Shown here in pieces: positions 3,901 through 37,102 of a stretch of 64,000 nt of DNA. The position numbers and the translations under genes were made by a program. The notes under the pieces were generated by a model, which saw nothing but the letters and a program-made list of their open reading frames with translations, searched no databases and had not been told where the DNA came from. The stretch comes from Chrysoperla carnea (Eukaryota; Arthropoda; Insecta; Neuroptera; Chrysopidae), in assembly GCF_905475395.1 (NCBI RefSeq), contig NC_058340.1:63590181-63654180 (forward strand). Reading direction: 5' to 3'. How positions within the stretch are numbered: the first letter of the stretch is position 1; the number at the start of each line of letters is the position of its first letter.

Positions 3901-6900
3901 CTTCATTATATTCAACCAAAGCTGTACGGATCTCTTGGGAAATCATTAAATCTTTAAGAAGTTGACTTGTTTTACGTTCTTTTTCAACTTCATCCCAAAC
4001 TTTTCGTTTCTCTTGCATTCTTAATTCTCTTTTAGTTTGAATTTGTTTTTGTATATTCAATAAAGTGGAAATTTGTGTTTCCGCTGCGCGTGTTTTTAGT
4101 TCATCAGCTATCTGAATTTTAGTATCAAATATATTTTGAAACGAAGCCATCGAACCGGTATTCGTTAAACCGTGTTCATAATTTTGATCACATATTTCTT
4201 TTAATTTAGCTAATTGATTTTCCGATGCACATAGATCCATTTCCATTGAGTTGGATTCGATTTGTGGCAAATCAGAATCTTGAAAACAATGTTTCACTAA
4301 GCACACACTTTTCCCACATAATAATATTAAATTAAGATATTCTTTCAGGAACAATGGAATTGTTGTTTCAGATGATATTTTAAAACCTTGTGTCCAATAT
4401 TTTCGATTTCGATAATGCGCAAAATTTGTATTCTTTTTAATAAAGAATTCATTATATGGATCAATTAAATTTCCATCCATGATCCAAGGTTTTATAAATC
4501 GTCGGAAATAATTTTGATAACAATGAAATAAGAAATAATGTACAATAAATAGATAATCATTTTTTGTTGTTCGAGAAAATTCTTGATATATATTATTAAA
4601 TAGATCGATACCAGTCCATATTTGTTTCGCTTCTATATTTTGGAAGAAACATCTTGCAACACTTTGGATAATTTCTAATAATTTTCGTGTATACATTTTA
4701 AAATCACTTAAAGAATTCCCATTGAAAAGTAGAACATTTGAACGGTAAAAATTAAAAAACTTTGGTAATTTCAAACACAAATCCTAAAAAAAATTACCCA
4801 AATCGATTAAATTGGTTATAAATGGTAGTAAAATTATATCCAAAAAGTGATTGGGATGATTTACGGCAGGGATGGTGAACCAATGGCAAGTGACACATTA
4901 TTTTGGGAACGCCACCGAGCACTAAGTTCAGATAACAGCTGTTGGGAAAATCATTAACAACAATTTTTTTGGATTTTTTACGATTTTTTTAAAACGAATT
5001 TCAAAAAAATGGGTCAAATCAGGGATGGTGAACCAATTGCACGTGACACATTATTTTGGGCACGAAACCGATCAGAAAAAAATTGGGTCAAATTTCAGTT
5101 AATTCTATAAAAATTTATTCTTACATTGAATGTATATCCATTTTCCTTATTTGGTGTTAATAATAGCGCATATAATCGTGTGAATAATGTTCCAGCCATT
5201 ATCAATTCTTCACAAAAACGATGAAAAGTGTGTGGTAATATTCCTTTTACGCATAAACCGGTTTTTATAATAAATTTATCATCTTCCTCTGACCAACGAA
5301 ATGAATTCGATTCTATACCCACTAAAAAATTAAAATATAAAATACTCCAATCTTTAGATCTTTAGAATTCAATCTGTCCTTTTAAACACTCGTAATGGAG
5401 ATAGATGGATCTTAATACGGAGTGCGAAATTTTATGCGGTTGTAGATGATACTCAAAGTAAGTGGCTAAAAATAGCTCATATTCGTAGCTGATGAGAGGT
5501 AAATAAAAAATTTCGTGCAAAATTGTTATCTCTACTTTCGAGTGTTTAAAAAGGCAGTCATTCTATCACAATAATAGGGTATTCTGCTATTTTTGAAAAA
5601 GTACTTCAAAATGTTGATTTTGCTAATAAAAAACGTTTTTTAAACTGTCAAAAACGCGGGCCTCCAATTTGATGACGTAATATGGGCATCACTATTCGAA
5701 ATAACACAAATAAGTATGACAGATATATTCATAGACATCTGATTATAATAAATATAAATAATTAAATACTTATTATCTATGTATACATTATACCCAGCTG
5801 TCTACACTGAACTAATTGATGGTCTATGACTCATACCGATATGACATCACAGCAGTCGAGCTAACCCGCGTTTTAGATCACGTAATATACAGTTTAAAAA
5901 TTACGATTTTTAATTTCAATATTTTAAAAGAAAAATGTGCTTTTATGACTATGATATTTAAGTATATTTTTACATAAATTTTAACTTTTTTCAAATTTCA
6001 TGATTTATTTTTGACTAACAATAATACCCTATTTATCTGTTATCTTTAAATGGCACTTACCTAAAAGATTTTTAGCATCAATTAAAAACTGATCTACACT
6101 TATCACATTAAACGTTTCCGATTCAATATTTCTAGATACTAAATTCGAACGATTCCTTAAAATTATTTTCCACAACACATAAATAATATCAACATTTGAT
6201 TCAAATAACGTATTCCGATTATTCAAAAAGTCATCACTGCTTTCTAAATTTTCCCAAACACAATTTTCACTTAATAATGTATCCCAAATATTTTCATTTT
6301 TAAATTGATTTTGTGACGCACTCTTTATATAATCAATTGTATTTTCATTTTTTTGGAAATTTGGATAAAGAAAATTACATGTTACATCATTTTGAAACAA
6401 GAATGATTCACCAAGTGGTTGAATATCGAGAAGATTTTGATCGATGTATGGGGAATCGTTGAATTTGGATAATTTTAGGGTATTAATACCGTGAAAATGT
6501 GGATAAATTTCGGGTACATATTCATAAATTTTACGATCACTAAAATTCTATAAAAAAATATGTATCAAAAAACAAGAATTATTTATCCAGTCAAATTATA
6601 CACTTTGAAGGTTACAAAAATTCCCATAGAGCTAAAAATTGATATGAATGATCAGAATACTATTATAAATGAATTGTGAAAAGTCCCTATCAATCCCACT
6701 TGTGCAAAAAATTTTATTGAGGGGGAAAGTTTGCCAAAATAGGTTTTTCGCGTTTTTCAGCAAAACGGTGAGTTTAGCAGCAAAAATAGTTTAGACAAAA
6801 ATTGTAGGTCATTCAATTTGCTACAAAATAATTTTCTGCACTTTTTTTCATAAGTGCTGCCATTTTCGTGATATAGCGGTTCAAAGAATTGAAAAAAATT

Positions 6901-8830: not shown

Positions 8831-9069
8831 TTGTATAGTATGTTTTATATGGGGATATCAGTTACGTATGTGTGACTTATATGTATGTGTAATGTAATAA
8901 AGCAATCAACACTGTCTACGCCTCTATGGTAGTTCAACAATTAACTCAATCAACTGTTTTGTTATTTGTAGATACAAAATATTATATTCGCCTAATACTT
9001 TTTATACTTTTCGAATAAGCTAAAGAAGACCAAAAATTAAACAAACAGTAACAATAAAATTAATTAACA

Positions 9070-9582
9070 GGTTGGCTGATAAGTCCCCGGTCTGACACAT
9101 AGATGGCGTCGCTAGTATTAAATGCATATTATTTTTATATAGTACCAACCTTCAAATGATTCGTGTCAAAATTTGACGTCTGTAAGTCAATTAGTTTGTG
9201 AGATAGAGCGTCTTTTGTGAAGCAACTTTTGTTATTGTGAAAAAAATGGAAAAAATGGAATTTCGTGTTTTGATAAAATACTGTTTTCTGAAGGGAAAAA
9301 ATACAGAGTCCGGAAACTCATTATCAAGCCAAGTTTTTGCTTCCACTGTATTTTTTCCCTTCAGAAAACAGTATTTTATCAAAACACGAAATTCCTTTTT
9401 TTCCATTTTTTTCACAATAACAAAAGTTGCTTCACAAAAGACGCTCTATCTCACAAACTAATTGACTTACAGACGTCAAATTTTGACACGAATCATTTGA
9501 AGGTTGGTACTATATAAAAATAATATGCATTTAATACTAGCGACGCCATCTATGTGTCAGACCGGGGACTTATCAGCCAACC
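9070..9582. mobile_element. palindromic mariner remnant
   Basis: Both ends carry the same 5-prime mariner sequence in opposite orientation: GGTTGGCTGATAAGTCCCCG starts at 9070 and its reverse complement ends at 9582. The arms are almost identical over about 230 bp and run into the start of a mariner transposase frame (MEFRVLIKYCFLKGKN). The spacer of about 40 bp at 9305-9345 encodes, on the minus strand, the next transposase residues (VEAKTWLD). The structure is two copies of a mariner 5-prime end joined head to head with the rest of the transposase lost, so it cannot be autonomous. The right side keeps a flanking TA (9583-9584); on the left the corresponding bases are CA. Confidence 0.85.
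9191..9415 (-). pseudogene. truncated mariner transposase N-terminus, minus-strand arm
   Basis: The frame encodes the beginning of a mariner-type transposase: the DNA-binding N-terminal stretch KEFRVLIKYCFLKGKN, then VEAKTWLDNEFPDS. It then runs into the opposite arm, where translation is antisense. The catalytic DD34D region is absent. The plus-strand arm at 9237-9461 encodes the same N-terminus up to LKGKNT. Confidence 0.75.
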
Positions 9583-10036
9583 TATTAATCAATCTTAGGC
9601 TATTCAATAGTAAGTAAGTAGTTAATATCAATCTCAGACCATTCATGATTTCTTTTTGCGTGAGTTTTTTGGGATTTTTAACGCCTTCAAGCGATACTTA
9701 AACAAGCGGATTTTTAAATTTTCTTCTAATTTTTTTTTCGAAAGAACTGGATTGGTTTTTCGAGTCCGGTTGCCCGTAAACAATCTGAAGTAGGCAACAC
9801 ACGTTACAAGCCCAAAACTTCTCAACTTCGAAAAAAAGATACTAATAACATATTTGGGAAATAAATAAAAATAAAAACAACAAAAATTAAATTTATACTA
9901 GGAAGATTTATTATTTATTTATTTATAAAATTATTATAGGAACAGTCTTACAAAAAATCACAAATTAATAATAAGCGAAAAAAAAAATAACAGTAAAAAA
10001 ATTAAGAAAAATAAATTACATATTATAAAATATTAA
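9583..10036. other. intergenic, no gene seen
   Basis: AT-rich spacer between the mariner remnant and the downstream end of the minus-strand sHSP gene. A short open frame at 9643-9825 on the minus strand has no recognisable motif. TTTATT runs near 9907-9925 offer several AATAAA polyadenylation signals for the minus-strand sHSP gene. Confidence 0.5.
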
Positions 10037-10561
10037 TTATTGTTTTTTCTCCTCGACTGATTTATTTTCTTTTCTTACTGGACCAGTTTGAGTAATTGGA
10101 ATTGCTCGTTCACCTGCTGAACCTTCAATTGTTAAAATACCATCTGAAGAGAGACTAGAAGCTATATTTTTACCATCATAACCTTCTGGTAACACATATC
10201 GTCTGGTAAATTGTCTTGAAATGTAACCATGTTCATCTTGTTTCTCTTCATGTTTACCCTCCACAATAATGTGATTATCATCGATGGCTTTTACTTGAAT
10301 TTCATTTGGAGCAAATTGTTGTACATCCAATGATACTTGGAATTTTTCTTTGTCAGCCACTACAGTAGATCCTTGATCCAATTTAGCCAAAGCAGAACGC
10401 CATGGTCGATAATAATTTCGACTTAACATCGATGGTACTACAAATGGCTCCAATAAATCGTCGCTTCGTAATCCCAATCCAAAATGTTGATCATGTAGGC
10501 GAGATGGTCTTGCCCATGGATCGCTTAAAACGTCTTGAAAGATGAATGGAATTAGAGACAT
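10037..10561 (-). CDS. small heat-shock protein (alpha-crystallin/Hsp20), copy with internal 7-residue loss
   Basis: Intronless 174-residue frame encoding an ATP-independent holdase chaperone. The alpha-crystallin domain spans roughly residues 65-150, including the [13 protein letters not shown] and [17 protein letters not shown] segments. The first 145 residues are identical to those of the divergent gene at 12833-13378. This copy then lacks seven residues (SAPKLAI in the other copy), which removes most of the last conserved beta strand of the domain (LTISAPK becomes LTIEGS). The frame stays open to a KKQ C-terminus. The deletion is bounded by CAAT in the intact copy. An upstream heat-shock element and TATA box suggest it is still transcribed; whether the protein folds and oligomerises normally is uncertain. 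Confidence 0.9.
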   Translation of the reverse strand: MSLIPFIFQDVLSDPWARPSRLHDQHFGLGLRSDDLLEPFVVPSMLSRNYYRPWRSALAKLDQGSTVVADKEKFQVSLDVQQFAPNEIQVKAIDDNHIIVEGKHEEKQDEHGYISRQFTRRYVLPEGYDGKNIASSLSSDGILTIEGSAGERAIPITQTGPVRKENKSVEEKKQ

Positions 10562-10701
10562 TTTTTTTTATTTACTTTAATTTACAAAATTCACAATAAA
10601 ATTCACTTGGAATATAAAGCACTTTTTAATCACTTAGATTCGCTTTCAGTTGTGTACTCGTTGAGTTTCTATTGCAATCTGCCGGTAACGCACGCTGTCA
10701 G

Positions 10702-12662: not shown

Positions 12663-12832
12663 CAGCGTGCAGTGCATTTTACCGTCAGAAGTGAATCAAC
12701 TAGTGAACTGTGCGAATCAAAGTAAACCAAGCGTTTCTACACTATATTCTATATCTATACCTATACTGTAATATACAGTGCATTTAAAGTTTTTTAATTC
12801 AATTGTGTTAAGTGATTGTTATTTAAAAAATA

Positions 12833-13378
12833 ATGTCTCTAATTCCATTCATCTTTCAAGACGTTTTAAGCGATCCATGGGCAAGACCATCTCGCCTACA
12901 TGATCAACATTTTGGATTGGGATTACGAAGCGACGATTTATTGGAGCCATTTGTAGTACCATCGATGTTAAGTCGAAATTATTATCGACCATGGCGTTCT
13001 GCTTTGGCTAAATTGGATCAAGGATCTACTGTAGTGGCTGACAAAGAAAAATTCCAAGTATCATTGGATGTACAACAATTTGCTCCAAATGAAATTCAAG
13101 TAAAAGCCATCGATGATAATCACATTATTGTGGAGGGTAAACATGAAGAGAAACAAGATGAACATGGTTACATTTCAAGACAATTTACCAGACGATATGT
13201 GTTACCAGAAGGTTATGATGGTAAAAATATAGCTTCTAGTCTCTCTTCAGATGGTATTTTAACAATATCCGCACCAAAGTTGGCAATTGAAGGTTCAGCA
13301 GGTGAACGAGCAATTCCAATTACGCAAACTGGTCCAGTAAGAAAAGAAAATAAATCAGTCGAGGAGAAAAAGAAATAA
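12833..13378 (+). CDS. small heat-shock protein (alpha-crystallin/Hsp20), intact copy
   Basis: Intronless 181-residue frame. It binds unfolding client proteins in the cytosol as a large oligomer, by family knowledge. Order of parts: N-terminal region with W/F-rich [12 protein letters not shown]; alpha-crystallin domain at about residues 65-155 ending with the conserved LTISAP strand; and a C-terminal extension with an IPIT motif (the I-x-I anchor used for oligomer contacts) and a charged KKK tail. It is paired head-to-head with the copy at 10037-10561, about 2.27 kb between starts. An AATAAA signal lies at 13466-13471. Coding identity with the partner stops close to the start and stop codons, while flanks are dissimilar. 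Confidence 0.95.
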
Positions 13379-20453: not shown

Positions 20454-23400
20454 ATGTGTTCTTTTAAACTATTAATTTTTATATTGTTGTTATATTTTCA
20501 ACAAACTTGTACAATCATTGGTGTGTAATTTTTAATTTGTTTTTAAATAAATCGCCGAAGAACAGAAATTCAAAATGTTTACTTAAATCACTTTTACTAA
20601 AAATGGCTTTTTGGCTCTTGCGTCCACCTTGTGATTTACGGGTTGGTCATACCTTTATAATGGGGTCAAATTAACACGGATCTGTAGGATTTTTGGGCCT
20701 TGCGCTCACCCTATAATGGTGTACACTCCATGTAATATATGTAATTTTACCAAAAATGAGTTAAGTAAACATTTACCACCATTAATTATTGTAAAAATAA
20801 TTTTGATTTATAAAAATTGAAACTTGAATAATCTATGAAAATCAAACTTTATTATTGTATGGTATGTATTTCGAACTAATCGAATGTTTTCTCTAGAATC
20901 GAAAACAGAGAACATCTAAATATCAAGTATCTATCTTGATATTTTTACTCGTAAAATCTCGATAAATAGGGGTGCCACTTTTACAAATTTGATCGGGAGA
21001 CTCCAGAAATCTTATAGACTAGACAGTATTATAATTCGATGTTATGATTAGATTAATTTCACAATCTCTTCACTTCCAGTTTGTTTCTCAACTTTCCAGA
21101 ACTTTAAAGAGGTTTACTTTACCATAAAAATGGTTTCAAATAATCTGAAATATTCAAGTTTATTTGCCTTCTTTTTTCATTTATTTTTTGAACTCACACT
21201 TAATTAAAGTTTAAAAACAATAATTTAAAGCAATTTTTCCCAAAAATTAATGGTATTTTGTTATATGTATAGTTAAAAAATGGCATGAAAATTGTAAATA
21301 CGACGATGAATGTTCGGACCATCGACAAGTATGCGATTATTCGGATGAATTCAAAATGTCAGTATGTGTTTGTGATAGGTAGGTTTTAATAGTGATTTAA
21401 TTTTATAATTTAATTAATATTTGGCTAAGTTTGCTGAAGCTATGATACGTTAAATGGGCTTGTTCATCTGCTTTTGAAAAAATCGATTTTTTTTCATGTG
21501 GTATCCAAAGTTGTATTAACATTCAAAATCTATCGGAAAATTTGGAAAATATTACTAAATTTTAGTGGAGTTATATCCTTGGTTTATAAAATTTAGATAA
21601 AATGTATGTTTGGTAAAGCAAAATCAATTTTTTAAAATTTTGATGACGTCATTAAGTACAAATTTATATATTTTTGGTCTAGTTCAAAATCATTCAATCC
21701 ATCCTATAATATTAAAGAGATTAAATTGTGAAGTTAAAAAAACACCTTTAAAACAAGGAAAATTATCTAAATGTTCATTTCATAAAATATTTTATAGCTT
21801 CCAAAAAAGTTGATGAAAAAATGTAATTTTTCGGAAATTTGACGGCTTGACTGTGTACACATTAAATATGCAGCTCCGCGTATTTTACATCCATTTAAAA
21901 AAATTTCAAAAACGTATTTTCCCAATTTCATAACAGTATAAAATTTACTTTAATAGCTAACATTTCCGGCGAAACTATTTCATTTTAGGTCAAGTTTATT
22001 GTTTTTAGTGATTGACGCCAAGTATTACACGTTAACATATTTTTGTTAATTAGTTAGTTTAGTAAGCTGATAATGTTTAATTAGTTAAATTAAGTGTGGA
22101 TTGTATTTGTGTACCGTAAAAAAAAAAAAAATTAAAATTATGAAAATAATTTTGTAAAAATATTTTCAATATAGGCAAAATGCTCGACGGCAATGTATAA
22201 AATAAGTATGTATACAAACTAGGTGAAAAAAATATGACAAACCAACAAAACATTTTGTAGAATATTCTCACATTTAAGTGACCTGGGTCCTGAAAACTTT
22301 AATAATTTATTTGAGTAATAATATTTCACCATTCTTTTGACTTTTCAAAACTTGTAGTATTATAATAAAATGTAAAAATTCTCAATTGTCTGAGGCAAAA
22401 ACGCCGTGGAAATATTCTATTTTTTTTAGTTAGGGGTAGATTCCGTTCATACTTAAATCCTTTTGGAAAAAAATTCGTGAAGAAATTCTTTGAGTGACTC
22501 AATTATTATCCATAAAGTTCTAAAACCATTGTTTTTGAACATTATCAACATAGTTAAGAAAAAAAACTCTGAGCACTGGGAATTGAATCACGGACCTTTA
22601 TTTATACGACATTAGTTAACACTGACAGCTCCGGCTTAGAAGACACCATGTAAATATGCCAATAATACGTTACCTAGTATTTTTTTGAAAATTATTTTAG
22701 CTTCATTTTTTTTTTAGAAAATTATCGCATTTTATCTGAAGTTATTTGTTTTTAATTAAAAATCTCGAATCCCCGGATTGCATATGTCTTTTCTATCTCA
22801 ATTCCTCAATAAAAAAATGACGGTCGAATAATATCTGTAACAAAAATCTATAAAACACTATTTGATGACTTATTTACAAGGCTGTTTTCATGTTATATCA
22901 TACCAAAAAATTCGATCAAAAGTGAGTTTAACGACTCAGTTAAAGGTCAGAAAGTATCGTATCTTATAAAATAGTTCATCTTCTTTAATTGGCACCTTAA
23001 AAATGCCTACACATGTTCAAACAACTGCCGCATAAACTTTGTTTTTGCAATTGGATGTATAGCAAAGATTGGTTAATTAATGTTATCAAGTGGTCTTAGT
23101 TTCCGGCAAATTTCCTGCTGCGTTTTTCTGACCGATAGCTTAAATATGACGTTATCATGCTCGTTTGAAAACGTAGCACTTTAGGAAAAAGTCGTAGAGA
23201 GAAATTTTGGTAAATTAGCCAAAACGAAGCCACTCAAGAAGTTTCAAGAATGTATTAACCATTGAACAAAAAAAGGATGATGTCCCGCAGATTAATAATG
23301 GTTTATTTTTTAAACTTTGGTACAGGATCGTAAAAAAAGTTTAAAATGTATTCATTTATGCTTAAATTAACAACTATTGTCTGTCAGTAGCCACACTGTT

Positions 23401-26102
23401 AGATATTCTTTGGCATTTGCTCAAATCTGATTAGAAATGTCTACACTGAATATTATTTACGTTTGTGTTCATAATACCTAGATATTTATTAACTAGAAAA
23501 TTTTATATGCATGATGTATTCCAAGAATAATACAAGTTGACAAAATGATATAAAGCTAATTATTTTATTTTCAACATATAAAATATTTGTTAATAATACC
23601 GTTATTATTTTGTATTGAAAATATTTGTCAGTTTACGACAAATACTGTCAGATTTGTTTGACTTTTTATTAAATGCTAATTTGTGAATAATTAGTAAAGA
23701 AACTTCTTTAAAATGTACAGACATTTTTGAACGCACGAAGTTAAATTTAGGTTCTGTTTTATCAAACGCGGATTCAAATAATGCTTTCCAGCTAGAGGAA
23801 AAAGCATTATTACTCCTTCCAAAAGCAGAAAAGCTAAGTTTTTTAAATTAAGTAAATTGCACTATCGCCAAACCTGTTGCATTTTAACGCTAAGGTGACA
23901 GCGCAACGAGTAAAAAAATTGTAAACCATACCTGTTAGACTCACCTGATTTTTTCATTGAATGAAAAGACAAAAGATACCCACATCATTTGACATTTTAA
24001 TGTGCTGTGCCATTTTTACTCCCTCTAGTCTTTTATAATTGACGTTCTTGTACATTAGCCGCAAGGTCTTAGTGTAGATGGCAGGAAAAAATCTGATATT
24101 TTAGGCTTAAGCCAACTCTATCATGCCCCTCGATACGTATGTACTTGTATGCTTATAAAATAGTCAGAATGAATTTTCAGATAGTCAAAATGTATATTTC
24201 GATTGAAATTTGGAAATCGAAAATTTTCGAAAGCGCTTCGTACGAAGAAGTACAAAAGGAAAAGTGCTCTAGATGTTACAGCAATCTTGAGTCTAAAATT
24301 TCAACATTTTATTGTTAATAATTTCAGTATTATTCGAGTTAATTATATACATTTCCGCTGAAAAATCAATTCTGTTTCCGTTGAAAAAATAACACTGATT
24401 TTTTTCGCGATTACAATAGGTACTTTCTTTACTTTGTAGAAGGAAGTAATTGATTCAGGAGTACCCAAAAAAGACTAATAGATTCAGGAGTACTCAAGAA
24501 AGACAAATGTAGTCTTTTCTATGTTTGTTGCAGAACTTCATGGTTGTTTTTATAAGTATTATATTACCCGACTTCCACGTTGCGGATGTTCTAAAAAAAT
24601 CATAATGCGTTGTGTGTTATTTTTTTGTTTAGTGTGCGTTTTTGGCCCTTGATATTAATATACACAACTACATAAATTTAAGTTCAATCAAACATTTTAT
24701 TTTAATAAACTAATTTGTAATCAAAAAGATTGTTTATACTTGAATCAGATCTGTGGCATATTTATAATTCTAAATAAAATAAATAAAATTATTATAATAT
24801 AAATATTTATAAAATATACGCAATTTATTAATTATTTCGAGTCTATATTTGTAATATACGTAATTATTTTGAGTTTTCAGTATTCATAAATGGAGTACAG
24901 ACTTTCATCAATGCATTCCAATACATAATTCAACGGAGTTAGTGAAATTATTGGAGGAAAAATATAATACAACTGGTAAGTCAAATAAAGTATTCTTGAA
25001 TTCAGCTGAGTGACGATATTGCATTCGATTTACAGTCGATAAGAGAAATCGAGAAAACTTTTTTCATTTTAAAAGGACGATGCCAGAATCTACCAAAACA
25101 CACATATTGTAGAATTAGTCCTGTAAAGTTTAGCCCACTCGAATTTTTACAAAAAAAATATCCACTTCCATTAAATTTCATGAAATGAAGTTTTATAAAT
25201 TGAAAACAAAAAATTTTGTTTGTATTTGTTTAGGATGGATTGCACAAGAAGCGCGTATTATTTTCATGGGTGCAATGATTGCTGGATTAATTGTTGTCTT
25301 TTTTTCCGTCCTATGTTTTTTGGGAGTTGTGTTATATTGTATGCATATTCGTAGACGGTAAGATATTAGTATTCCAAAGGATTTCTGATCAACTAGAGAT
25401 AGTACCTTTTTCAAACACAGCAGCGTGGAATCTTACAGTTGCACTTAATAAACTCGAAGTAACAACAGCTTCTAAAGTAGCATTTAGTATTTGCGCCTAG
25501 AGTTATTGACTCATACTTCTCAACCTTATTGAGTACAACCTTAACAGTACCTCCTTTAACCTGTCCATCCTTTTTTTGGTCGATCGAGCTTATTTTCAAT
25601 CCGCAAGGATCTCTTTTTAGTCAGTCGAGTTCAGCCCTTTTTTGGTTTTAGTCTCCCTTTCCAATGGACAATCTTCAATTTACCATTAGCTTACAATTTG
25701 GGAGACCTATTTGGTAAGATGGGTGCCGTATGCAAGTCGCCATCTGATCGCAGTGATGTTTTCTACTAAAACGAGTTAGTTTAAATAACAAACAGAAGAA
25801 ACTTAAGTTTCAAGGCCAAAGCTACTTTACCTAAGTCATTGTATAGGCTTCTATAGGATCAAATATTTTGAATAGGCCTCCAGACCATTCTAGTTGAAGG
25901 ACAGTTGTATATTCCTATTTTATAAGTGGCAAGTGATAGCTCCCCTCCCTCTCATTAAAGACTTCTCTAGCCGATCCAAAAAAGGACTATAAATTAGATA
26001 ATTTAACTTATCTATTACAGAGATCGTGAATTAAAAGAAATTGTTCATCGATTGAAGGAACAACATTCAGCTCCAACAGTGCGAAAAGCTGTACATATTT
26101 AA
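20454..26102 (+). CDS. small signal-peptide, cysteine-module, single-pass membrane protein, paralogue 1
   Basis: Exons 20454-20520, 21273-21378, 24881-24975, 25234-25357 and 26021-26102 join in phase to 157 residues. Exon 1 encodes a signal peptide (MCSFKLLIFILLLYFQQTC). Exon 2 encodes a six-cysteine module (C-x5-C-x6-C then C-x-C) resembling EB-type or short EGF-like repeats. Exon 3 ends in EEKYNTTG with a possible N-glycosylation site. Exon 4 is a membrane segment (GAMIAGLIVVFFSVLCFLGVV) followed by basic HIRRR, and exon 5 is a short charged cytoplasmic tail. The predicted topology is type I. The paralogue at 33726-37102 has the same intron phases and identical lengths of exons 2, 3 and 4 (106, 95 and 124 nt). 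The first donor is GTGTGT, weaker than the others. AATAAA is at 26279-26284. I do not recognise the family. Confidence 0.72.
21379..24880. other. long intron 2 of paralogue 1
   Basis: About 3.5 kb separate exons 2 and 3. I see no transposase, reverse transcriptase or RNA gene in it. Short open frames at 21610-21813 and 22077-22271 have low-complexity, AT-driven compositions and no motifs. Confidence 0.5.
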
Positions 26103-26371
26103 AATTTAGATTAGCCATAATTTTATGGATTCGTTATAAATGGTACTTTCAAAGAACCAAAAATATATTATCAGTGAGAGTCGATAATCATAAAACACTT
26201 TTGAAGAAAGTGATTGGTATATTGTTTTCAAAAGTTCATTCCACATTCATAAGAAAACTATTTATAGAAGTGTTTTAAAATAAAATACATTCTGAATAAT
26301 TCAGTTGTTTGTTTTAAAAATTTCATAAATTTTTTTCAGTTAACGAATTCAACATTTACAAAGTTTTTTTT

Positions 26372-29300
26372 TTACTCTTGGTAATCACTATTTTCCATAA
26401 TGAAATCTATATATGGAGCGACTCTTGTATAACCACCTGGTATTCCTGCTTGACATAAAAGACCTCCAAATGAAACAATACCAACTTGAATCTTATTTAT
26501 GGTTAAAGGACCTCCACTATCTCCCTACAGAAAATCATTGAAAATTAGAAACATAGCCATTAAAAAAACATTTTGAAAGATATCAATTCGCTTACCGAAC
26601 ATGCACCCCTAAGCCATAATCCCGTGCGACCAGAAACACAAATATCGTTTGGTGGAAATTGACCATAATACCTTTTACAAGTTGATCTATCAGTTGTTCG
26701 AACAAATGTATAACGTAATTTATTTGTAATACCTATGGCAGCTATAAAAAACAGAAAGAAATGCTAAAAAAACATGCGTTAAGGGAAATAATTCGTTCAC
26801 TTGAGTTTCAATTTTCAATTGAAGTCGCTGAGTTGGTAAACAATTTTTATTGGGTTTTTTTTTTTTGTCAAATTATATTTTTAACACCATAGAAACAAAA
26901 TAACAAAAATTGAAAATTATTATTAATTTATGTCAAATAAATTTGTTCTTCTAATTTTTGATTGATCAAAACGTCACTTTTTGGAACTATGTTCCTTATC
27001 GCACGTAATCGTTTTGATTTGTTAGCGGGATGGGAGTTAAAACCAAGAAAAGTCCAACATAAAAAAATGACATAAAAAACCCACCAGATTCTTTAACGTC
27101 GATGTGGGTTTTTTGTTAAAAACGCCAGCTAGATTATCTCTTGCTGAGAAGCCCAATACAAATGCTAAATTGAGAAACAAAGTTTCAAACAAAGGTAATT
27201 TTTATTACTTACCATCGGAATCTTTCCCCCATCCACTAACTCTTGCTGTCATGTTAACTATATTATCATTTTGACTGGAGCTTGACTCTAAAGTAACTGG
27301 TTTTATTTGATCTGAAATACAAAATCATTTAGCTAGAACAAATAAATAACAATTCAAGAAATTCTCTTAACCCATCAGCCGTACGATAATTTTTAGTCGC
27401 GCGTTGAGAGATTTGCTCATGCGTTCTACTCATGCGTCAAATATTTCACGCGTTATATATTCTTAGTAAAAATAGCAAGTGCTGACGCGTTATTCTTAAT
27501 AAAAATTCATACAGTATGAGATAATTTATGATTTCGAGGATAAAAGGTGATAAAGAGTTTTTATTATACTGATAATTTGATGAATAAATTCGAGAGGATG
27601 AGAATTATTCTAGTAAATTTACCACTAAAAGTAATGTCTTCGTTTAATAAAACAAGAGCAATATCATTTGTAAGGTTATCAGGATTCCAATCTGGATGTA
27701 CTATCGATGTATTTGTTTTTACCTCCATTTCACCGGGTGTTGCTGCATTAAGAGTATTTGTTCCTAATAATATGACAAAGTCTGTTGCTCTAAAATAAAT
27801 AAATAAATAATTTTAAAAAAATACGATTAAAATGGAAATTTATTATAATTTTTCATTTTATACTATATATAAGTTACATATATTATGTATGTGTTTGTTT
27901 GTTATAGCATATACTATATCCACTGAGGTAATGAGGAGAAAAATACTCTCATTAATTTGTGTGTAAGAGTGGCTATCTTAATTTGATTATTATAGAATTG
28001 TTATTATCTTCAAGTTATTCTCATTAAGTATATATATATTTTGTCAGAAATAATTTTATACCATTACCATTAATATAGAATGGAAAATTTTTCAGCATTA
28101 ATTGGGACATTGCTGTATTACATTTTCTTAAATTTTTAAGGAAGAAAAGCGAAAATAAAAATTGCAAAAATTTCTTACCCTTCAGCACAATGTGCAGCAG
28201 TTAGAATAGTTCTTTTTGATATCACTGAACCACCGCAAAAATAAGTTCCATTTGGTGTATTTATGTTAAGTGCTGCCTTAAAAATAATACAATTTTTATA
28301 ATCTAAAATGTTGAAGTTGTTCTTGGGAAAAAATAAATCTTAAGATTTATTGTTATTCATTTGCACATGAGAATTTAGAAAATTGGTCGATAGTTCTTTT
28401 TATTTAGGAGAAAACTATGTTCTTATATATGATTTTTTGAGGTAGGTATAGCAGCGTCGAGGGTCATATAGAGCAGGCGCTAGAAAGAGTTGAGTGTGCA
28501 AAATTCGAGGACCGCATTTTGTCAATTGATTTTTGTTCAGAAAAGTTTATAGAAAAACAGTTATGTCAATTATTTGAACCAAATAAAGCTATCCGAGATT
28601 TTTTAGGTAATTTAACGTCAAAAAGGGCACATGTGTTATTTTTCTAAAGTTTGCTGTTTTTAAGTTATTAACAGTTTAATATTTGGAAAAATTCCGGAAA
28701 GATTATTTCAAAGCTGAAAATTAATGCAAATAAATTAAATTTTTGAGCTTTTCAAAATCTTTAAATCATCTTTGAACATCTTTTATAAAGTTCCGATGAG
28801 TAATTACAGATTGCCACCAAATTTTTAAGTATAACCTTTTCTGAACAAGAATCAAGTGACAAAGTGCTGTCCTCGGACTTTGCACACTCAACTCTATCTA
28901 GCGCCTGCTCTAATAGTTAACTACTATGGATGATAAGTTTTCATAGATTTCTCCAAAACTAGTCGGTGGTAATCAAAAAAATATTTTAGAACTAGTCGGT
29001 GGAAATTAAGGATGTATGAGCACGGTAGTGGGGACACAAATAAAAAAAATATATTTTTTCAATTTTGATGGTGAATTATGTTATAACTTGACAATATAAG
29101 ACGAAAATTAATAATAAAATTTTTTGATATTTGGAGTAATTTTCAAAATATCGAAAATAGAAAATTTTGTTTGATTATTTAGCTTTCGATATTTCGAAAA
29201 TCAAGGCAGTTATAGAAAAATTGTATTCTTATTTTTCGTCTACATTCATGAAGTTATGTCAAAATTCATCATCAAAGTTGAAAAGGTACAAATAATTTCA

Positions 29301-30648
29301 ACCACAAGTCTTAACTTGCCTTGGAGTCGTACTACCTTAAATAAAAGTACTTTTGACTGGCTAAGATTTATGACTGTGACATATACATATAGGTATATTT
29401 TCACATAGGTAGTTATAGCATTTTTATAGAGCTGGCTGTAAGCAAAGAGTAAATAAAATTGTTTTTTTTTTATTTGTTAAAAGTGTTTATTACGATTATA
29501 CAAAATTTACATGCCATTAGAACCAACACCTATATGTAAATTTTAATAAACTAAATGACTACACAACGATTAATTAAGAAAATTTATGCATTGCTCTTAA
29601 ATTCATCTTTTAAAATTGTATGAAATTTATAGGTTTCTCTTTATCTTCAATTTCTTTAATGTAAAGTCCTATGGTACAGAAACAATTCAGGTATGAATTA
29701 AAGATACATCGTGTTTTTCGTTTCGAAAAATTAAGGAAAAAACTCTAGGTGATTCAAAAAGTAAACCCTCCAAAATAATTTGTAGAAAGGTTTCTGAACG
29801 ATTTCAATCTTGACTGATCTTGCATTTTTTAAACTAGAATTGCTATAAATTTTAAATGTTAATATTTTTATTTGCGGCAGTATTTTATATAAAATTTATT
29901 TTCACCTTTGGTAAATCCCATTCATCCTTAATTTCTCTGGAAATTAGAATTTACTCATACCTGATATGGAAACATGTTTGGTCTAGCTTCAAAACCACCA
30001 ACAATTCTTGATTGTACTTTTATACCTTGAACTGCTCTTGCAATGTTTGAAGCATCATGCATTGGATTATGAGACATTTCCATTGGTTGTAATAAATCCC
30101 ATGCTACTTCACGCTAAAATTATTTAGAAAACATTTTCGAAAAAATATTTAATCGCCATTTTTACAGGCCCAAATTTTGGAAATATAGTATTTTACACAT
30201 CTAGGGAGCAAAAGTAATGAATCGGCTTCGCCTCGGGTGACAATGAATATAAGATCGGAGACATTCTGCACTTGGTCCCGTTTTATGTATATACATGTTT
30301 CTGCTCGACTGTTGAAACTTTCCGTCCGGAGAGGAGAAAAAGTATTTCATGTATTATTTGGGGTAATTGAGACTCCCAAACATAAAAATTCAGCTCATTT
30401 GACGTATAGATTAAATGAAAAGTTCATATTTCTACACTTAGGTGAAAATTTTCTGAATCCGTGGTTGCATACAAAGTCTCAAAAACTAGATAAAGACTTC
30501 TATTCAACTACGTATTCAAAAAATTTTCAGAAATTACAAATTTTATAGGCTTGGGCCAGTGGATTAAATTGTAATTTAGACAATTACTCACTTGTAATGT
30601 GGAAACAAATAATAAAGTTAGCAAAAATGTACTTATTTTGAAATTCAT
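26372..30648 (-). CDS. S1 family serine protease, chymotrypsin/elastase/collagenase-like, 7 exons
   Basis: Minus-strand exons 30648-30592, 30113-29961, 28276-28179, 27789-27623, 27311-27213, 26741-26596 and 26524-26372 join in phase to 290 residues. Parts in order: signal peptide (MNFKISTFLLTLLFVSTLQ, exon 1), propeptide, activation site R-IVGG (exon 2), catalytic His in TAAHC (exon 3), catalytic Asp in NDIAL (exon 4), and catalytic Ser in GDSGG (exon 7). All three triad residues are present. The residue six before the catalytic Ser is Gly (GACSGDSGG), not Asp, so trypsin-like cleavage after Lys or Arg is unlikely; chymotrypsin, elastase or brachyurin-type collagenolytic specificity fits better. 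A secreted, probably digestive, zymogen is inferred. It lies between the two membrane-protein paralogues on the opposite strand. Introns contain MITEs. Confidence 0.92.
28471..28910. mobile_element. TA-flanked MITE with long terminal inverted repeats, in protease intron 2
   Basis: The left end GAGCAGGCGCTAGA and the right end, ending GCGCCTGCTC, are inverted repeats; pairing extends through GAGTTGAGTGTGCAAA and TCGAGGAC to about 40 bp. TA flanks both ends (28469-28470 and 28911-28912). The 440-bp element has no coding frame. It lies in the intron between exons 2 and 3 of the protease gene. Confidence 0.8.
29007..29339. mobile_element. inverted-repeat element, family C, copy 2, in protease intron 2
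   Basis: The two halves are imperfect reverse complements: the left half has GATGGTGAATTATGTTATAA and the right half TTCATGAAGTTATGTCAAAA then TTCATCATCAAAG. The ends resemble TTAAGG... and ...CTACCTTAA. Related sequence lies at 19825-20045 and 59524-59695. Confidence 0.6.
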
Positions 30649-33600
30649 TTTGTTCAAAAAAAAAAACGTTTTTATGGTTAAAAATTTTGATTAGTAAAAT
30701 GATAAACTAGCAAACGATTCGATTACGTTGCTATATTTTATATGATAAAAAAGTTATATGTCACCTACGTAATATGAAAGAAAATTTAAAAAATTTCAAT
30801 AATTTATCCTTTAATTTTTTTAGCAAAGTTATCGTTTAGAAAAATTTTTTTTAGTAAACAAACACTTTTTTTGCTTTTATTTTTCATTATTTTTTACTTT
30901 TGATAAAGGTAAGTATATACCTAAGATAATTTAAGAAAAATATTTTCGTGTTTTACGGTCCCTACATTTTTGCAATTTTATGGTGATATTTATGGCTGAG
31001 TACGGAATACTTAAGCGACTTAAATTGTGAATGCTCTAGGTTCAGGTCCTTCTTTCATATTGGAGACTTTAGGCAAAAATAATGTTTCTCAAGCATGGGT
31101 CAACCAATGGTCTAGGTCAACTTACTAAGTCGAGGTCCTAAGGGGGGGGCAGGTAACTATTCTCGGTACATCCATGTCGCCAAAGATTAAAGACTCTGTG
31201 CATAGGACATCCATGAGGGAAACATACCCAGGGTCAAATGGATTAAATGTGCCCCAATTTAGACTGCATCGTTTTTTTGGTATGGACTTACAGGGTGGAT
31301 TTAAAGAAACGTATCTAGAAACGAAAATTTATTTTTTTTCCCACATAGTTTTTCTCCAGCCCGGGAGGGTAACGTAACGACATTCGATACACATTCGATA
31401 GAAACGGCTTTGATTTGTAAACAAATATTATCTAAGCAACGCTCGTTGTTTTTACTCTACTATTTCGTAATAAATTTTCAATTATTTATTGGTTTTTATT
31501 TCGTATTTTAGATTTAAGAATTTAAGATCTTAAACAACAGATTCAAACGATTTGTAGAAAGTAGGACTTTCACTTAGGGCTAAATAGGTTAGAGATTTTA
31601 GGTTTGAGAGATTTGCAGATAATATGTTGATAGTAATGTAAACGCAGCTCGAAAAAAATTAGAAATTTTCGGACTGGAATATATGTCGGATTTACCTTAC
31701 TATTTTGCGCAAATTGTTTATTTTTAAAAAATGCATCAGACTCAGTTATATGTATGTTAACAATGTAGTTCCAGAAAATCTTATCATTATCTATAACAAT
31801 TATAGCTAATTAAATATCGAATAATAGACTTATTAAGTTCGCAGATAAGAATTCGTAGAAGTATTGGAGGTACCTTTAGGTAGAGTTGGAATTTAAATAA
31901 CTTTATCTTTAGTAAACCAACTAAAACCTACTTTTATTCTCATTCTTGCAAAAATAAACTACTTTATCAGACTAAAAAGGAAAAATTGTTTAACTCTCAT
32001 TAATTTTGAGGTTTTGCGTTTCAAGCACTTAGATTTCGAAAACAAAAATGTTCAAACGAGGTAAATTATCTCCCGATAATCTGCAATGTTCAGTAGGTTT
32101 ATGAATACCTTCTAGAACCTAATGCAAAAACCCTCATCTCGAACCATCTTACTTCAGAATTTTCGAGGTAAATTGCTAAATTTCCCCGTCTATAAGTTCT
32201 GCTTACTAAAAGTTTACAGTTAATTGTGTGTTGTTGAAAGATTTAAACTATAAATAAAAAATATTTAGAACAACAATATAACTATTTCAATGCTAACGTA
32301 ATTGAAATTTTACATTAATTTTCACATTTTCATGAAGGGCACTTTGCATAAATTGTATAATAAATTTATTTTATATAAAGGATGTCTGGTAATGACCCCT
32401 ACGGTTCCGTAAAATCTATCAACTTCTACAAAAAAGTCTATTTTATCATCGAGCCCGACTAAAGTAATCAACCAGTGTTTTTTCTTTAATTTTCTTTATA
32501 ATAATTCAAGATCAAATATTCTAAATTTTATCAAAATAGGACCACAAAATTGCATTGAAATATAATAAATTTATCGGCCTAATATCATTTTGGAACTGTT
32601 ACCATATCAGATAGACATGTGCGTTTATTTAACGCCTTTTACAAATTTTACCCATAAAATGCAATGTGATCCATCACGATTCCTTAGTACAGAGATAAAC
32701 ATCTGACCCAATCAACTTTAAAAAGACTGACCAATTTGTGGGGCACGCTATACGATCCATTTTAAACGAACCTAGCTTTTACATTGTCTGTTTCCATTTA
32801 AAATAAAAATATTTTTTACATGCTAGCGTGCGATCGTCTGAAGCATAGAAATACACACAATAAGTTTGTATATCCATTATTTTTGAAATATAGGGTAATG
32901 TCTGGTACCCCGGGTATATTTATCACTGAAAAGTTTCTCGACAGGTATAGCAACTATATATGAAAATAAAGTAATCTGACTAAAAAGCAAGTGACTGTGA
33001 TAATGAATGATTATGTATTTGAATTCAAGTAAAATAAAAAAGTAAATTTTTTAGTGTTTCAAATATATTTTGCTTTTCCTGTTGATTTGTTAAGTTGACT
33101 ATTGGTTTTTGTGTTTTAATTAATCATATTCACCTAAATCATTTCTTATTTGTAGAGAGTTGGTTATGCAAGATTTCAGTTTTATACATAATATAACATA
33201 CAAGTGATTTTTACAAAATTTAAAAAATCTCCGACAAACTTTTTTCTTGGTGTTTCATTTCCCTCCAAACTCAACCGATTTTTTTGGATTACGAGAAAAG
33301 GGTTAAAAAATTGATCCATAGTTTTTTCCGGCAGGCAAACAGGCAAGGAAGCAGACATGCAGGCAATACGAGTTAAAGTAAAGGGAGTAATTATAGTCCT
33401 ATAAGAAGCGGAAACTATTTTAATATTGTATTTTTTTTAATGGATATAAACACAAATGTAAATATTGATTCAAAATACATAGGTACTACACTCTACCCTT
33501 ATTATAATGTATTAATTTATTTTGAAATGATTTTGGCAAGATATTAATTTTCAACAATTTTCTCATATTATATTATTTTATTTTTGTGTACCAAAACAAT

Positions 33601-33725
33601 ATTTAATTTTTATTTACAATATTGGTGGCCATTATTTATTAATATAAATATTTAATTTTTATATGCAAGATTCGTGGCCATTATAAATTAAATTTTAAAA
33701 AAATATTAATTATAATATAAAAAAA
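30649..33725. other. intergenic, no gene seen
   Basis: About 3 kb of AT-rich DNA between the protease and paralogue 2. Small open frames at 30237-30548 (inside the protease intron) and 31174-31377 lack motifs. A block at about 31385-31460 resembles one at 62172-62262 (family D), sharing ATTCGATAGAAAC and CTAAGCAACG. A run of nine or so G lies near 31141. Confidence 0.5.
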
Positions 33726-36700
33726 ATGAAAAAATGTTTTTTATTGTCTTGTTTGTTTATCATTGTTGTGTTCTTTAGTGAGTTCGTTCAACTTGAAATT
33801 ATAGGTAAGTTTACTAATTTTGAGCCAAAATTTCTATGCAAAATTTTTAAAAATTTTTTATTTTAATTTGGAAAAAATTTTTATGATCTTCTCTTTACAA
33901 CTATAAGTTTTATCTGAAGGTATGTATCTTGAGGATCCATGGATTTTAGGTCATATATTTCATTTTTTTCATGTTAGTAGGTATAATTCGTTTTAATAAA
34001 ATATAATTTTAATTTTTTTTTTCTAGTTCGATATTGGGGTGATGAATGTTTTATGGATAACGATTGCACAGATCATCGACAATCATGTGTGTTTATTCCG
34101 GAAAGTGGTATTAAAAAATGTGAATGTGATAAGTAAGTTCGAAAGTATTTCTTTATTATAGTTCGAAAGAATTTCTTATTTATTTTTTCACTGATAACGT
34201 TATAATTATTTTTATTAATAAAATATAACTAATTAAAAATTTTTATGAATTATTATGAAATATCCAAAAGATTTAAAAAATCTTAGTTATTATTCATATC
34301 TTATTTTCCATAATATGTTTTTTATTCACAAGAAATACCTTATTATAAGCCATGGTTACAATAACATCCCACCTAAAGTATATATGTAGATTATTTTGTG
34401 GAATACTTTTTAGAAAATTAATTTCGAAATATAATTTATCTCTACGAAGACTCACATATCTACGAAATTTATTTTCTCATTATAGATGTTCGTTTATTTA
34501 AATCTTCAGCTGAGTCCACCTTACGTCAAAGGTAGCATTGGACTGCCGAACGTCCTTAAAACGAGCTGGCGGAGCAAATAAATGTAAACCTGGTATGGGT
34601 ACCTGGACACATTGACATTCCTTGAAATTGTGAAACCGGCATGCAGTGCTGGATTTACACTAGGGTCAGTCGGGGCTAGTGCCCAGGGCGGCAAATTTTT
34701 TAGGGCGGCAAAATTTTGAAAGTGAGAAAACATTTTCTATACAATATATAATTAACTAATTCTTTTAAATAAAGATTTTATATTTCAAGAAATATAATTT
34801 ATATGCATTATGTATCAAATTAAAATTTTGTATATTATATATTAAATTTATAATATATTAAATTTAAGTGAAGACTATTAAAATAAAATTAATTTATTTC
34901 CATAAAGGTTTGAACAAATAAAATTTGATACTTTTTTTTTCTGAAATTGATAAAATAATATAGTTTTTTTTGAAGAATTAAAAAAATTTTTTTCTCATGT
35001 TTTTTGAGAACTCTAGACATAAAGCTGAAGATTTGCTAGTTGCTGTATTATCTGTTCTTCAGTTTCTTGATCTTGATCTCTCAGATTGTCGAAGTCAGTC
35101 ATATGATAACGCGAATAATGTATCAGGGATTTATTCGGGCTTACAGGCAAGAATTCATGAAATTATATCTTGCAGAACATGCTTCTTGTGCTGTTCATTC
35201 TATGAATTTAGTTGGAGTTGAATGCGCCCCAGTTGCAGTAGAATGCGCCCCAGAAGCTGCGTCATTCTTTCATACAGTACAAACTTTATACAACTTTTTT
35301 ACTGCATCGACGCATCGCTGGGAAGTCTTACAGTCTCATACTGAAAAAAGAATTGCGTTAAAAACTTTATCTGCAACCAGATGGTCAGCTCGTTATGAAC
35401 CGGTTCTTTTTTCTGCAATTAATTAGTTATTCTAATTCTTAAAAAATAAGATCAAAACTATTAAAATAAAATTTCAGTCATAGGGCGGCATTTTCTTCAG
35501 TGCCCCAGGGCGGCAGAAATTTAAATCCGGCCCTGCCGGCATGTTTGCTAGAAATGGTACAATGCTGTCGGACACAAGCATCAATAGATACGCGGGAGTT
35601 CCATTTGCGAGCTGCAAGTTGTTCCTCAAAGAGTATATCTTAAAAAGGCCAATCTTAGATGAAGGGAGGATTATTGCATTAGCTGTCATAGTGAGGAGGA
35701 TGAGGAAACGATGTCTCATCTCCTCTGTCCCTGCCCAGCTCTTGCCACGAGGAGGTGGACTCACTTGAGCCAGCCTTTAAAGGCAGAGAGATCGTCAAAG
35801 AATTCTTTGACGATCTCTCCGACTTGAAGTCCGATTACGTCAAAGCATTCCTGCTGTTATTAAACAGCTCCAAATGTTCATGAAGTAGTGCCGGAGATGA
35901 GCTAACCTCTTTTCTGTATCACAACGGGCCCTATGGTCTAAGTGTGTCCCACCCCAGGACAGCCACTCTAACCTAACCCTACCTAGATCTTAAAACGGAA
36001 TTAAGAGAAACTTATTTTATTAACCGAGTTAAAAACAAAATAGGATTACAGGGGAATTAGAGAATTAGTGGGAAGTAAGAGTTCATATGTTAGAGGCATT
36101 CCGTGTCTTCTTGGGGAAGTTTCTAGTAATATTATTCGATACTCTAGAGAAAAGATCTTATTGTAAGCGTTATACATCTTCTATTTTATTTCAGATTTCA
36201 TGTTTGGGATGAAAATTTGCGATCCTGCAACTTACGTTATAATGCCACGCATTTGTTGACATTACTAGTAGAGAAATATAATACCACAGGTAAGCCTAAT
36301 TTGCGCTCTCACGGGTAAACAGTGATGTTTACGAAAAAAATGTTTCAAACAAAAGTTGTTTATTTTTTTATAAGGAACATTTTTACTTTTACATTTAAAC
36401 TTTTGTTCTATTTCTAACGGTTTGCAATAAGACTCAATTGGTTGCTCATTTACGAACTTGGCCTCACTTTTTACGTCCTGAGTACGCTGTAAAAATTGAT
36501 TTCTTTTTTCGTTTTTCGATATCAGCTTGATCGTATCGATACCAATTTGTCAATTTGAAGTGGGCTGACTATATATAACGAAAATATGAGAGTGTCTTTA
36601 TCTTCAATGCGACACATTGTAGAACAAGCCATAAACGTTCAGGCCAAACAGAATCCATATCAAATTTTTTTCCAGTATTTCATTAATTTTTAGGTTGGAT

Positions 36701-37102
36701 TGAACATGAAGCGTATATAATATTTCATGGTGCATTATATGCTGGATTATTGGTTGTTTGTATAACAATTGGTTGCTTTTTGAGTACGATTTTGTATTGT
36801 AATCACATTAGGAAAACGTAAGTAGATTTAATTTGGATCAGGAAATTAAACACTCGATAAATAACTTCTGATACACATATTTGTAATCTCCTCTAAAATG
36901 AAATTTTGGATTCTTGGTGATCGATCAATAATTTTTATTTAAATGAAAATTCACTAATTTTTTTTGTATTTTTTGTTTTAGCGATAAAAAATTAAAAAGC
37001 GATGTCAAAGAATTTCAAGATTCTACATCGAAACCAAAAAATTTGAAATTGAAAACTTCTGCACACAAAAGTTTAAAGAAAATTGGAATACTTGAAGTTT
37101 AG
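33726..37102 (+). CDS. small signal-peptide, cysteine-module, single-pass membrane protein, paralogue 2
   Basis: Exons 33726-33804, 34027-34132, 36195-36289, 36694-36817 and 36982-37102 join in phase to 174 residues. Exon 1 is a signal peptide (MKKCFLLSCLFIIVVFFSEF). Exon 2 has the same cysteine module as paralogue 1 with the shared core C-x3-DC-x2-HRQ. Exon 3 contains N-A-T and N-T-T sequons and ends VEKYNTTG, as in paralogue 1. Exon 4 is a hydrophobic membrane segment. Exon 5 is a lysine-rich cytoplasmic tail, longer than in paralogue 1. The same order, intron phases and internal exon lengths show a duplication. Both introns and tails have diverged widely. Intron 2 hosts a nested LINE/hAT insertion. 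Family unknown; possible roles (receptor, adhesion, ligand) cannot be chosen from sequence. Confidence 0.75.
34644..35535 (+). mobile_element. hAT-superfamily transposon, internally deleted, with exact 8-bp target duplication
   Basis: The element starts CAGTGCTGGATTTA and ends TAAATCCGGCCCTG, giving imperfect terminal inverted repeats, and is flanked on both sides by the identical octamer CCGGCATG (34636-34643 and 35536-35543). An 8-bp duplication and CAG ends are diagnostic of hAT elements. The core encodes part of a ZMYM1-like/hAT transposase. At 892 bp it is far too short to be autonomous. Subterminal GGGCGGCA repeats are present at both ends. Confidence 0.9.
35040..35426 (+). pseudogene. 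hAT transposase fragment (ZMYM1-like)
   Basis: The frame includes the stretch HASCAVHSMNLVGVECAPVA and then SFFHTVQTLYNFFTASTHRWEVL and LSATRWSARYEPV, of which only short parts are quoted here as recognition marks: the SxHSxNLV motif and TRWSAR are typical of the hAT/DUF4371 transposase core. The N-terminal zinc finger and the C-terminal dimerisation region are absent, and the piece before HASC shifts frame relative to 34997-35221. Confidence 0.75.
35786..35819. repeat. 34-bp perfect palindrome in the LINE tail
   Basis: The sequence centred on GAATTC reads the same on both strands from 35786 to 35819, with arms GAGAGATCGTCAAAGAA. It lies in the coding-like LINE tail just after the cysteine motif, so it could be chance repetition of EIVKEFF- and DDLSD-type codons or a feature of the element. 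Confidence 0.85.
36305..36545. repeat. interspersed repeat, family A, copy 2, in paralogue 2 intron 3
   Basis: Reverse complement of 8580-8820: GGGTAAACAGTGATGTTTAC, CAAACAAAAGTTGTTTAT and CGATATCAGCTTGAT are shared. It lies in the short intron between exons 3 and 4 of paralogue 2. Confidence 0.65.

What the first reader, a model, noticed from the sequence alone, without database searches (positions are those of the whole stretch)
20454..37102. Unrecognised tandem family of small signal-peptide, cysteine-module, single-pass membrane proteins
Two genes on the same strand share the same five-exon plan, the same phases and identical lengths for exons 2-4 (106, 95 and 124 nt), plus shared motifs (D-x-C-x2-HRQ-x-C, EKYNTTG-W-I-x-x-EA). 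The sequences have otherwise diverged strongly, with different signal peptides and cytoplasmic tails. I cannot match them to a named family. The conserved exon sizes argue for selection on a compact ectodomain and membrane segment, with freedom in the tail.
Basis: partly seen in the sequence, partly recalled or inferred. Interest (0 to 1): 0.7.

Follow-up and report, generated by a model that had tools for sequence, protein, structure and literature searches.

The report
Two lacewing membrane-protein sister genes
Two neighbouring, intact-looking sister genes of the green lacewing each encode a small predicted cell-surface protein with one cysteine module, one membrane span and a variable tail; they look real and old, but what they do and whether other insects have them could not be tested here.

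Summary
The window lies on chromosome 4 of the green lacewing Chrysoperla carnea. Two same-strand genes, A (157 aa) and B (174 aa), each have five exons, GT-AG introns, phases 1-2-1-2 and identical exon 2-4 lengths of 106, 95 and 124 nt. The proteins are homologous (44% identity over 144 aa, E 3e-44). Synonymous sites look saturated, and dN is below dS except in the tail, which suggests an old duplication kept by selection. Own-genome searches found no convincing third member. A trypsin-like gene on the other strand lies between them. Each protein reads as a type I membrane protein: signal peptide, one six-cysteine module (spacing 5-6-10-1-12), two sequons, one transmembrane helix, short tail. 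The module resembles EB and EGF-like modules, but EB membership was not met. Best reading, by inference: a membrane-tethered ligand or co-receptor subunit that acts through its ectodomain and membrane segment. No insect protein collection was available, so 'unrecognised' is untested. Interest is modest.

The parts
20454..20520 (+). Gene A exon 1 (67 nt): start and signal peptide
   Evidence: in-frame stop 9 nt upstream of the ATG
21273..21378 (+). Gene A exon 2 (106 nt): first five cysteines of the module
24881..24975 (+). Gene A exon 3 (95 nt): last module cysteine, linker, sequons NST and NTT
25234..25357 (+). Gene A exon 4 (124 nt): juxtamembrane segment and transmembrane helix
   Evidence: hydropathy
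26021..26102 (+). Gene A exon 5 (82 nt): cytoplasmic tail and stop
   Evidence: AATAAA at 26279
33726..33804 (+). Gene B exon 1 (79 nt): start and signal peptide
   Evidence: in-frame stop 30 nt upstream of the ATG
34027..34132 (+). Gene B exon 2 (106 nt): first five cysteines of the module
36195..36289 (+). Gene B exon 3 (95 nt): last module cysteine, linker, sequons NAT and NTT
36694..36817 (+). Gene B exon 4 (124 nt): juxtamembrane segment and transmembrane helix
   Evidence: hydropathy
36982..37102 (+). Gene B exon 5 (121 nt): cytoplasmic tail and stop
   Evidence: first ATTAAA 37197, first AATAAA 37595 within 800 nt

Best explanation
A and B are old, functional paralogues encoding small type I plasma-membrane glycoproteins. 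Shown: gene structure, homology, and codon-level constraint on the ectodomain and membrane segment but not the tail. Inferred: the signal peptide inserts the chain; six cysteines form a compact EB/EGF-like knot held close to the membrane on a stalk of about 20 residues with two sequons; the conserved G-A-x-x-A-G membrane segment and a cysteine at the inner membrane face anchor it or let it pair with a partner. Because the tail is short and unconstrained between the copies, the protein most likely works from outside and within the membrane, as a membrane-tethered ligand or as an accessory (co-receptor) subunit, and not as a stand-alone signalling receptor. The divergent tails suggest that the two copies differ in trafficking or inner partners.
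For: Gene models and phases; homology. As DNA only parts of exons 3 and 4 align with weight (E 1.1e-5 and 1.4e-10; the rest 0.006 or worse). Of 65 identical residues 41 use the same codon against 38.2 expected at saturation, so the duplication is old; dN 0.58 and dS 1.28 overall, with ectodomain and TM constrained and tail not. Six module cysteines, two sequons at aligned positions (A N74, N87; B N78, N91) and two hydrophobic peaks in each. Four of five cysteine spacings lie in the range of 13 EB modules of the same genome.
Against: No transcripts, orthologues or structure could be examined. Topology rests on hydropathy, not on a trained predictor; the signal cleavage site of B is not clear by eye. 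The periodicity of invariant TM residues is not significant (p 0.27), nor are the two conserved small-xxx-small pairs (11% of shuffles have as many). Two sequences give little power on the tail, where the alignment is gapped. Ligand against co-receptor is not decided by any search.
Confidence: 0.45

Rival explanations
1. A and B are divergent single-module members of the insect EB-module group (PF01683). This concerns the fold and can be true together with the best explanation.
For: EB is the only Pfam family listed for both proteins at E up to 10 (12.4 and 13.4 bits). C-x5-C, C-x6-C, C-x-C and C-x12-C spacings lie within the range of 13 lacewing EB modules, and 9 of 13 of these have C-x2-D as A and B do.
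Against: Both are below the cut-off of 24.3 bits, and for B a TMEM128 match over the membrane part ranks above EB (E 0.024, also below its cut-off). Against a model of 13 lacewing EB modules A scores 0.2 bits (341 of 1000 cysteine-preserving shuffles do as well) and B 8.6 (21 of 1000), while the modules score 13.2-35.3 left out in turn and an EGF-like decoy 6.0. The C3-C4 gap is 10 against 3-6, and a phase 2 intron splits the module.
Confidence: 0.35
2. They are membrane-tethered growth-factor-like ligands released by intramembrane (rhomboid) cleavage at the G-A top of the helix, working like Spitz or TGF-alpha without being members of that family.
For: Architecture of signal peptide, one six-cysteine module, one span and short tail. 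Three aligned positions near the outer end of the span fit a small P1 with large hydrophobic P4 and P2' (that P1, P4 and P2' are the crucial motif positions: passages of PMC2941825; the residue classes are recalled); 1.5% of column shuffles have as many (a test chosen after seeing the sequence).
Against: Cysteine spacing is not that of EGFR ligands (recalled), no EGF model was listed by Pfam at E up to 10, and the cleavage test is post hoc and weak.
Confidence: 0.12
3. They are accessory subunits pairing through the membrane segment with a larger receptor or channel.
For: The membrane exon is the best conserved of the five (59% identity, dN 0.37), with invariant G-A-x-x-A-G, C-F-L and L-Y-C.
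Against: Conserved residues do not fall on one helix face significantly, and the small-xxx-small pairs are within chance.
Confidence: 0.25
4. Chance open frames or decaying pseudogenes.
For: No transcript evidence was available.
Against: Homology at E 3e-44, eight GT-AG introns in matching phases, coding scores and dN below dS outside the tail.
Confidence: 0.03

Closest known systems
EB module proteins (Pfam PF01683)
   Same: Six-cysteine order, C-x5-C and C-x-C-x(10-12)-C spacing, C-x2-D start in 9 of 13 lacewing modules; module begins behind a phase 1 intron in A and B, as EGF and EB modules often do (recalled)
   Different: Below the Pfam cut-off, longer C3-C4 loop, module split by a phase 2 intron, one module only and a membrane span
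EGF-like membrane-anchored ligands (Spitz, Gurken, TGF-alpha)
   Same: Overall plan: signal peptide, one small six-cysteine module, one span, short tail (plan of the ligands recalled)
   Different: Cysteine spacing 5-6-10-1-12, no Gly/aromatic EGF signature after C5 (signature recalled), no EGF model listed by Pfam at E up to 10
Small type I co-receptor or accessory subunits (general class, recalled)
   Same: Compact ectodomain, conserved membrane segment, short unconserved tail
   Different: No sequence match to a named subunit in Pfam over cut-off or in solved structures; partner unknown

Membership tests
EB module (PF01683) | Score at or over the curated cut-off (24.3 bits) | tested here: not met
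   12.4 bits (A) and 13.4 bits (B), 2 of 2 below; neither is among the 31 genome places listed, 22 of them marked over the cut-off alone or with neighbours
EB module (PF01683) | Cysteine framework of EB modules | tested here: inconclusive
   4 of 5 spacings within the range of 13 lacewing EB modules; C3-C4 is 10 against 3-6. The 13 come from the 8 loci returned, not from all 31 places
EB module (PF01683) | Similarity beyond the cysteines | tested here: inconclusive
   A: 341 of 1000 shuffles score as high; B: 21 of 1000
EB module (PF01683) | Module uninterrupted, followed by a phase 1 intron (as seen in this genome) | tested here: not met
   Phase 2 intron inside the module in A and B. Of 13 lacewing modules 8 have a phase 1 donor as the first donor-like GT within 20 nt, 10 when read by eye. 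The 13 were picked as uninterrupted, so split EB modules could have been missed
EGF-like domain | Match to an EGF-like Pfam model | tested here: not met
   No EGF model listed at E up to 10 in 2 of 2 proteins (HMMER's filters drop most matches above about 0.1)
EGFR ligand | EGFR-ligand cysteine spacing and G-x-R-C end (recalled) | tested here: not met
   Spacing 5-6-10-1-12; no G-x-R-C in either protein
Type I membrane protein | N-terminal signal peptide plus one later transmembrane helix | tested here: met
   Two hydrophobic peaks (19-residue mean over 1.6) in each protein and no other; hydropathy only, cleavage and orientation not tested
Tandem paralogue pair | Homologous, same strand, neighbouring, same exon plan | tested here: met
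   an opposite-strand trypsin-like gene lies between them

The most novel reading that the evidence does not exclude
A taxonomically restricted insect or neuropteran family of membrane-tethered cysteine-knot ligands with a cysteine module of its own, released by intramembrane cleavage at a conserved G-A site, with two copies that diverged in their tails.
Probability: 0.07. Interest if true: 0.6.

Novelty: new variant of a known kind. Interest (0 to 1): 0.25.

Why it matters
If expressed and shared by other insects, this would be a small, undescribed cell-surface protein family with a clear split between a constrained outside and membrane part and a free tail, which makes ligand or partner screens simple. 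As it stands it is a well-supported gene pair of unknown function, and such pairs are not rare in insect genomes (recalled).

Tried and rejected
Third copy in the genome: the two weak extra hits (C5:55900845, E 0.96; C1:64029783, E 1.96) were inspected on both strands; the 3 kb around each holds no six-cysteine module, HRQ motif next to one, or YN[ST]T motif like that of A and B (a first scan had covered the forward strand only). The C5 match carries stops. A profile built from A and B, run on 8484 open stretches of 264 kb around the pair, matched the ten exons, as it must by construction, and nothing else below E 0.37.

Solved structures: best E 0.4 for the profile and 0.68 for the B ectodomain, chance level. 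Viral contigs: 30 stretches matched a pattern, none a relative. Papers: three peptide strings of the shared motif in 0 papers; the two EB-module searches listed 3 papers each, none by title or start of abstract on this architecture; a search on lacewing, orphan-gene and cysteine-rich terms found 177 papers, 8 listed, none by title on it. Venom: in the main text of the lacewing venom paper PMC12758981 the terms EB domain, EB module, transmembrane and EGF occur 0 times (word search and two passages); a membrane span argues against venom. A first EB extraction read minus-strand loci in the wrong direction and was redone on both strands. Helix-face periodicity of conserved TM residues: not significant.

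Full report
Source. The genome held for the window has 337 contigs; its contig C1 is 139,979,878 bases and C4 is 77,476,099. The report on the Chrysoperla carnea assembly inChrCarn1.1 (PMC10116181, first of two text parts read) gives 337 scaffolds, a longest scaffold of 139,979,878 bp and chromosome 4 of 77.48 Mb. The window is therefore on chromosome 4 of the common green lacewing. C3 (94.12 against 94.41 Mb), C6 (38.56 against 38.62 Mb for X) and the total (559.49 against 560.25 Mb) are slightly smaller than printed, so the copy differs a little from the printed version.

Observation. Both gene models were rebuilt from the DNA: five exons each, 8 of 8 introns GT-AG, phases 1, 2, 1, 2, exons 2-4 of 106, 95 and 124 nt in both, proteins of 157 and 174 aa. 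A stop codon lies in frame 9 nt (A) and 30 nt (B) before the start; AATAAA starts 177 nt after the stop of A, and for B the first ATTAAA is at 37197 and the first AATAAA at 37595. BLASTP gives 44% identity over 144 aa, E 3e-44. With codon usage from neighbouring genes of the window the true frames score +27.6 and +24.3 bits and the ten other frames are negative.

Copies. Six-frame searches of the own genome with B gave 8 matches, all in A or B, and with A 10 matches, 8 in A or B and 2 weak ones elsewhere that show no like module or motif on either strand. The tool scores only its best candidates, so this is a lower bound. Between the copies, exon 4 is found at E 6.3e-10 and 5.8e-9, exon 2 at 0.007 and 0.002, exon 3 at 0.69 and 0.1, and exons 1 and 5 only as part of other matches or not at all. 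A third copy of like divergence should therefore show through exon 4; a much more diverged one could be missed. A profile of A and B over 264 kb found nothing but its own ten exons below E 0.37.

Age and selection. As DNA only parts of exons 3 and 4 align with weight (E 1.1e-5 and 1.4e-10; other matches 0.006 or worse; plus strand only). Of 65 identical residues 41 use the same codon, against 38.2 expected if synonymous sites were randomised, so dS is close to saturation and its values are rough. By region (dN and dS, Nei-Gojobori): ectodomain 0.49 and 1.38, transmembrane 0.43 and 1.47, tail 0.82 and 0.84, signal peptide 1.03 and 1.85, whole 0.58 and 1.28. The tail shows no constraint between the copies, although its alignment is gapped.

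Anatomy of the proteins. The 19-residue hydropathy mean passes 1.6 in two places in each protein, the signal peptide and one later span. The six module cysteines have spacing 5-6-10-1-12 in both. Two sequons are at aligned positions: A N74, N87; B N78, N91. Exon 1 encodes the signal peptide; exons 2 and 3 together are a phase 1-1 unit of 201 nt with the module and stalk; exon 4 encodes the span; exon 5 the tail. Disulfide formation, glycosylation and palmitoylation of the conserved inner cysteine are inferences from position only.

What module is it? Pfam lists EB below the cut-off for both (12.4 and 13.4 bits against 24.3). Other sub-threshold entries are Ribosomal_L12_N and AtDEF-like for A, and TMEM128 (E 0.024, ahead of EB, over the membrane part) and Col_cuticle_N for B. 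The genome holds 31 EB places at E up to 10, 22 marked over the cut-off alone or with neighbours, none of them at this locus. From the 8 loci returned, a cysteine pattern gave 14 modules; one was set aside before counting because it looked EGF-like and served as a decoy. With a model of the other 13, A scores no better than chance (0.2 bits; 341 of 1000 cysteine-preserving shuffles as high) and B somewhat better (8.6 bits; 21 of 1000), the decoy 6.0, while the 13 modules score 13.2-35.3 when left out in turn. The gene structure also differs: the module of A and B is cut by a phase 2 intron. I therefore do not file A and B as EB proteins; the fold may still be EB- or EGF-like.

Mechanism. The best reading is a membrane-tethered ligand or accessory subunit acting by its ectodomain and span, since the tail is short and free; this is inference. 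A rhomboid-cleaved ligand is the boldest version: three aligned positions near the outer end of the span fit the P4, P1, P2' pattern (positions from passages of PMC2941825; the residue classes used are my recall), as many as in 1.5% of column shuffles, but the test was chosen after seeing the sequence. Conserved small-xxx-small pairs (11% of shuffles have as many) and helix-face periodicity (p 0.27) are not significant.

Neighbourhood. On the left lie a gamma-tubulin complex gene, a pair of small heat-shock protein genes in inverted orientation (one copy tested in Pfam), a mitochondrial carrier and a DUF5614/DUF1308 gene; between A and B is a trypsin-like gene on the minus strand, of which one exon passed Pfam and a second tested stretch (26563-26763) gave no family. 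Nothing there points to a function for A and B.

Limits. No insect protein, transcript or related-genome collection was searchable, so orthology, expression and novelty are open. The absence of a named family rests on Pfam, solved structures, viral contigs and paper searches only.

Noticed in passing
10128-10570 and 12824-13266: Two small heat-shock protein genes in inverted orientation share arms of 443 nt at 100% identity with 2253 nt between; over 555 aligned columns the copies differ by 4 mismatches and 21 gap columns, which suggests recent duplication or gene conversion.
   Followed up: partly
9055-9306 and 9346-9597: A near-perfect hairpin (252 nt arms, 98%, 39 nt between), probably a foldback or MITE-like element (the type is a guess).
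   Followed up: no
34982-35423 and 35484-35765, intron 2 of gene B: The first stretch looks like a remnant of a hAT-type (ZMYM1-like) transposase and the second like a non-LTR element end, both by recall; 35040-35423 and 35484-35765 gave no Pfam family at 0.001.
   Followed up: partly
26400-30100: Trypsin-like serine protease gene on the minus strand between A and B; 27567-27812 matches PF00089 (E 9.1e-7); the outer limits are by eye.
   Followed up: partly
28471-28910: Inverted repeat ends: a 14-base word at 28471 recurs as its reverse complement at 28897, each once in the window, with longer similarity by eye; probably a small mobile element near the protease gene.
   Followed up: partly
2921-4783: Minus-strand gamma-tubulin complex component (PF17681, E 8.7e-19).
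   Followed up: no
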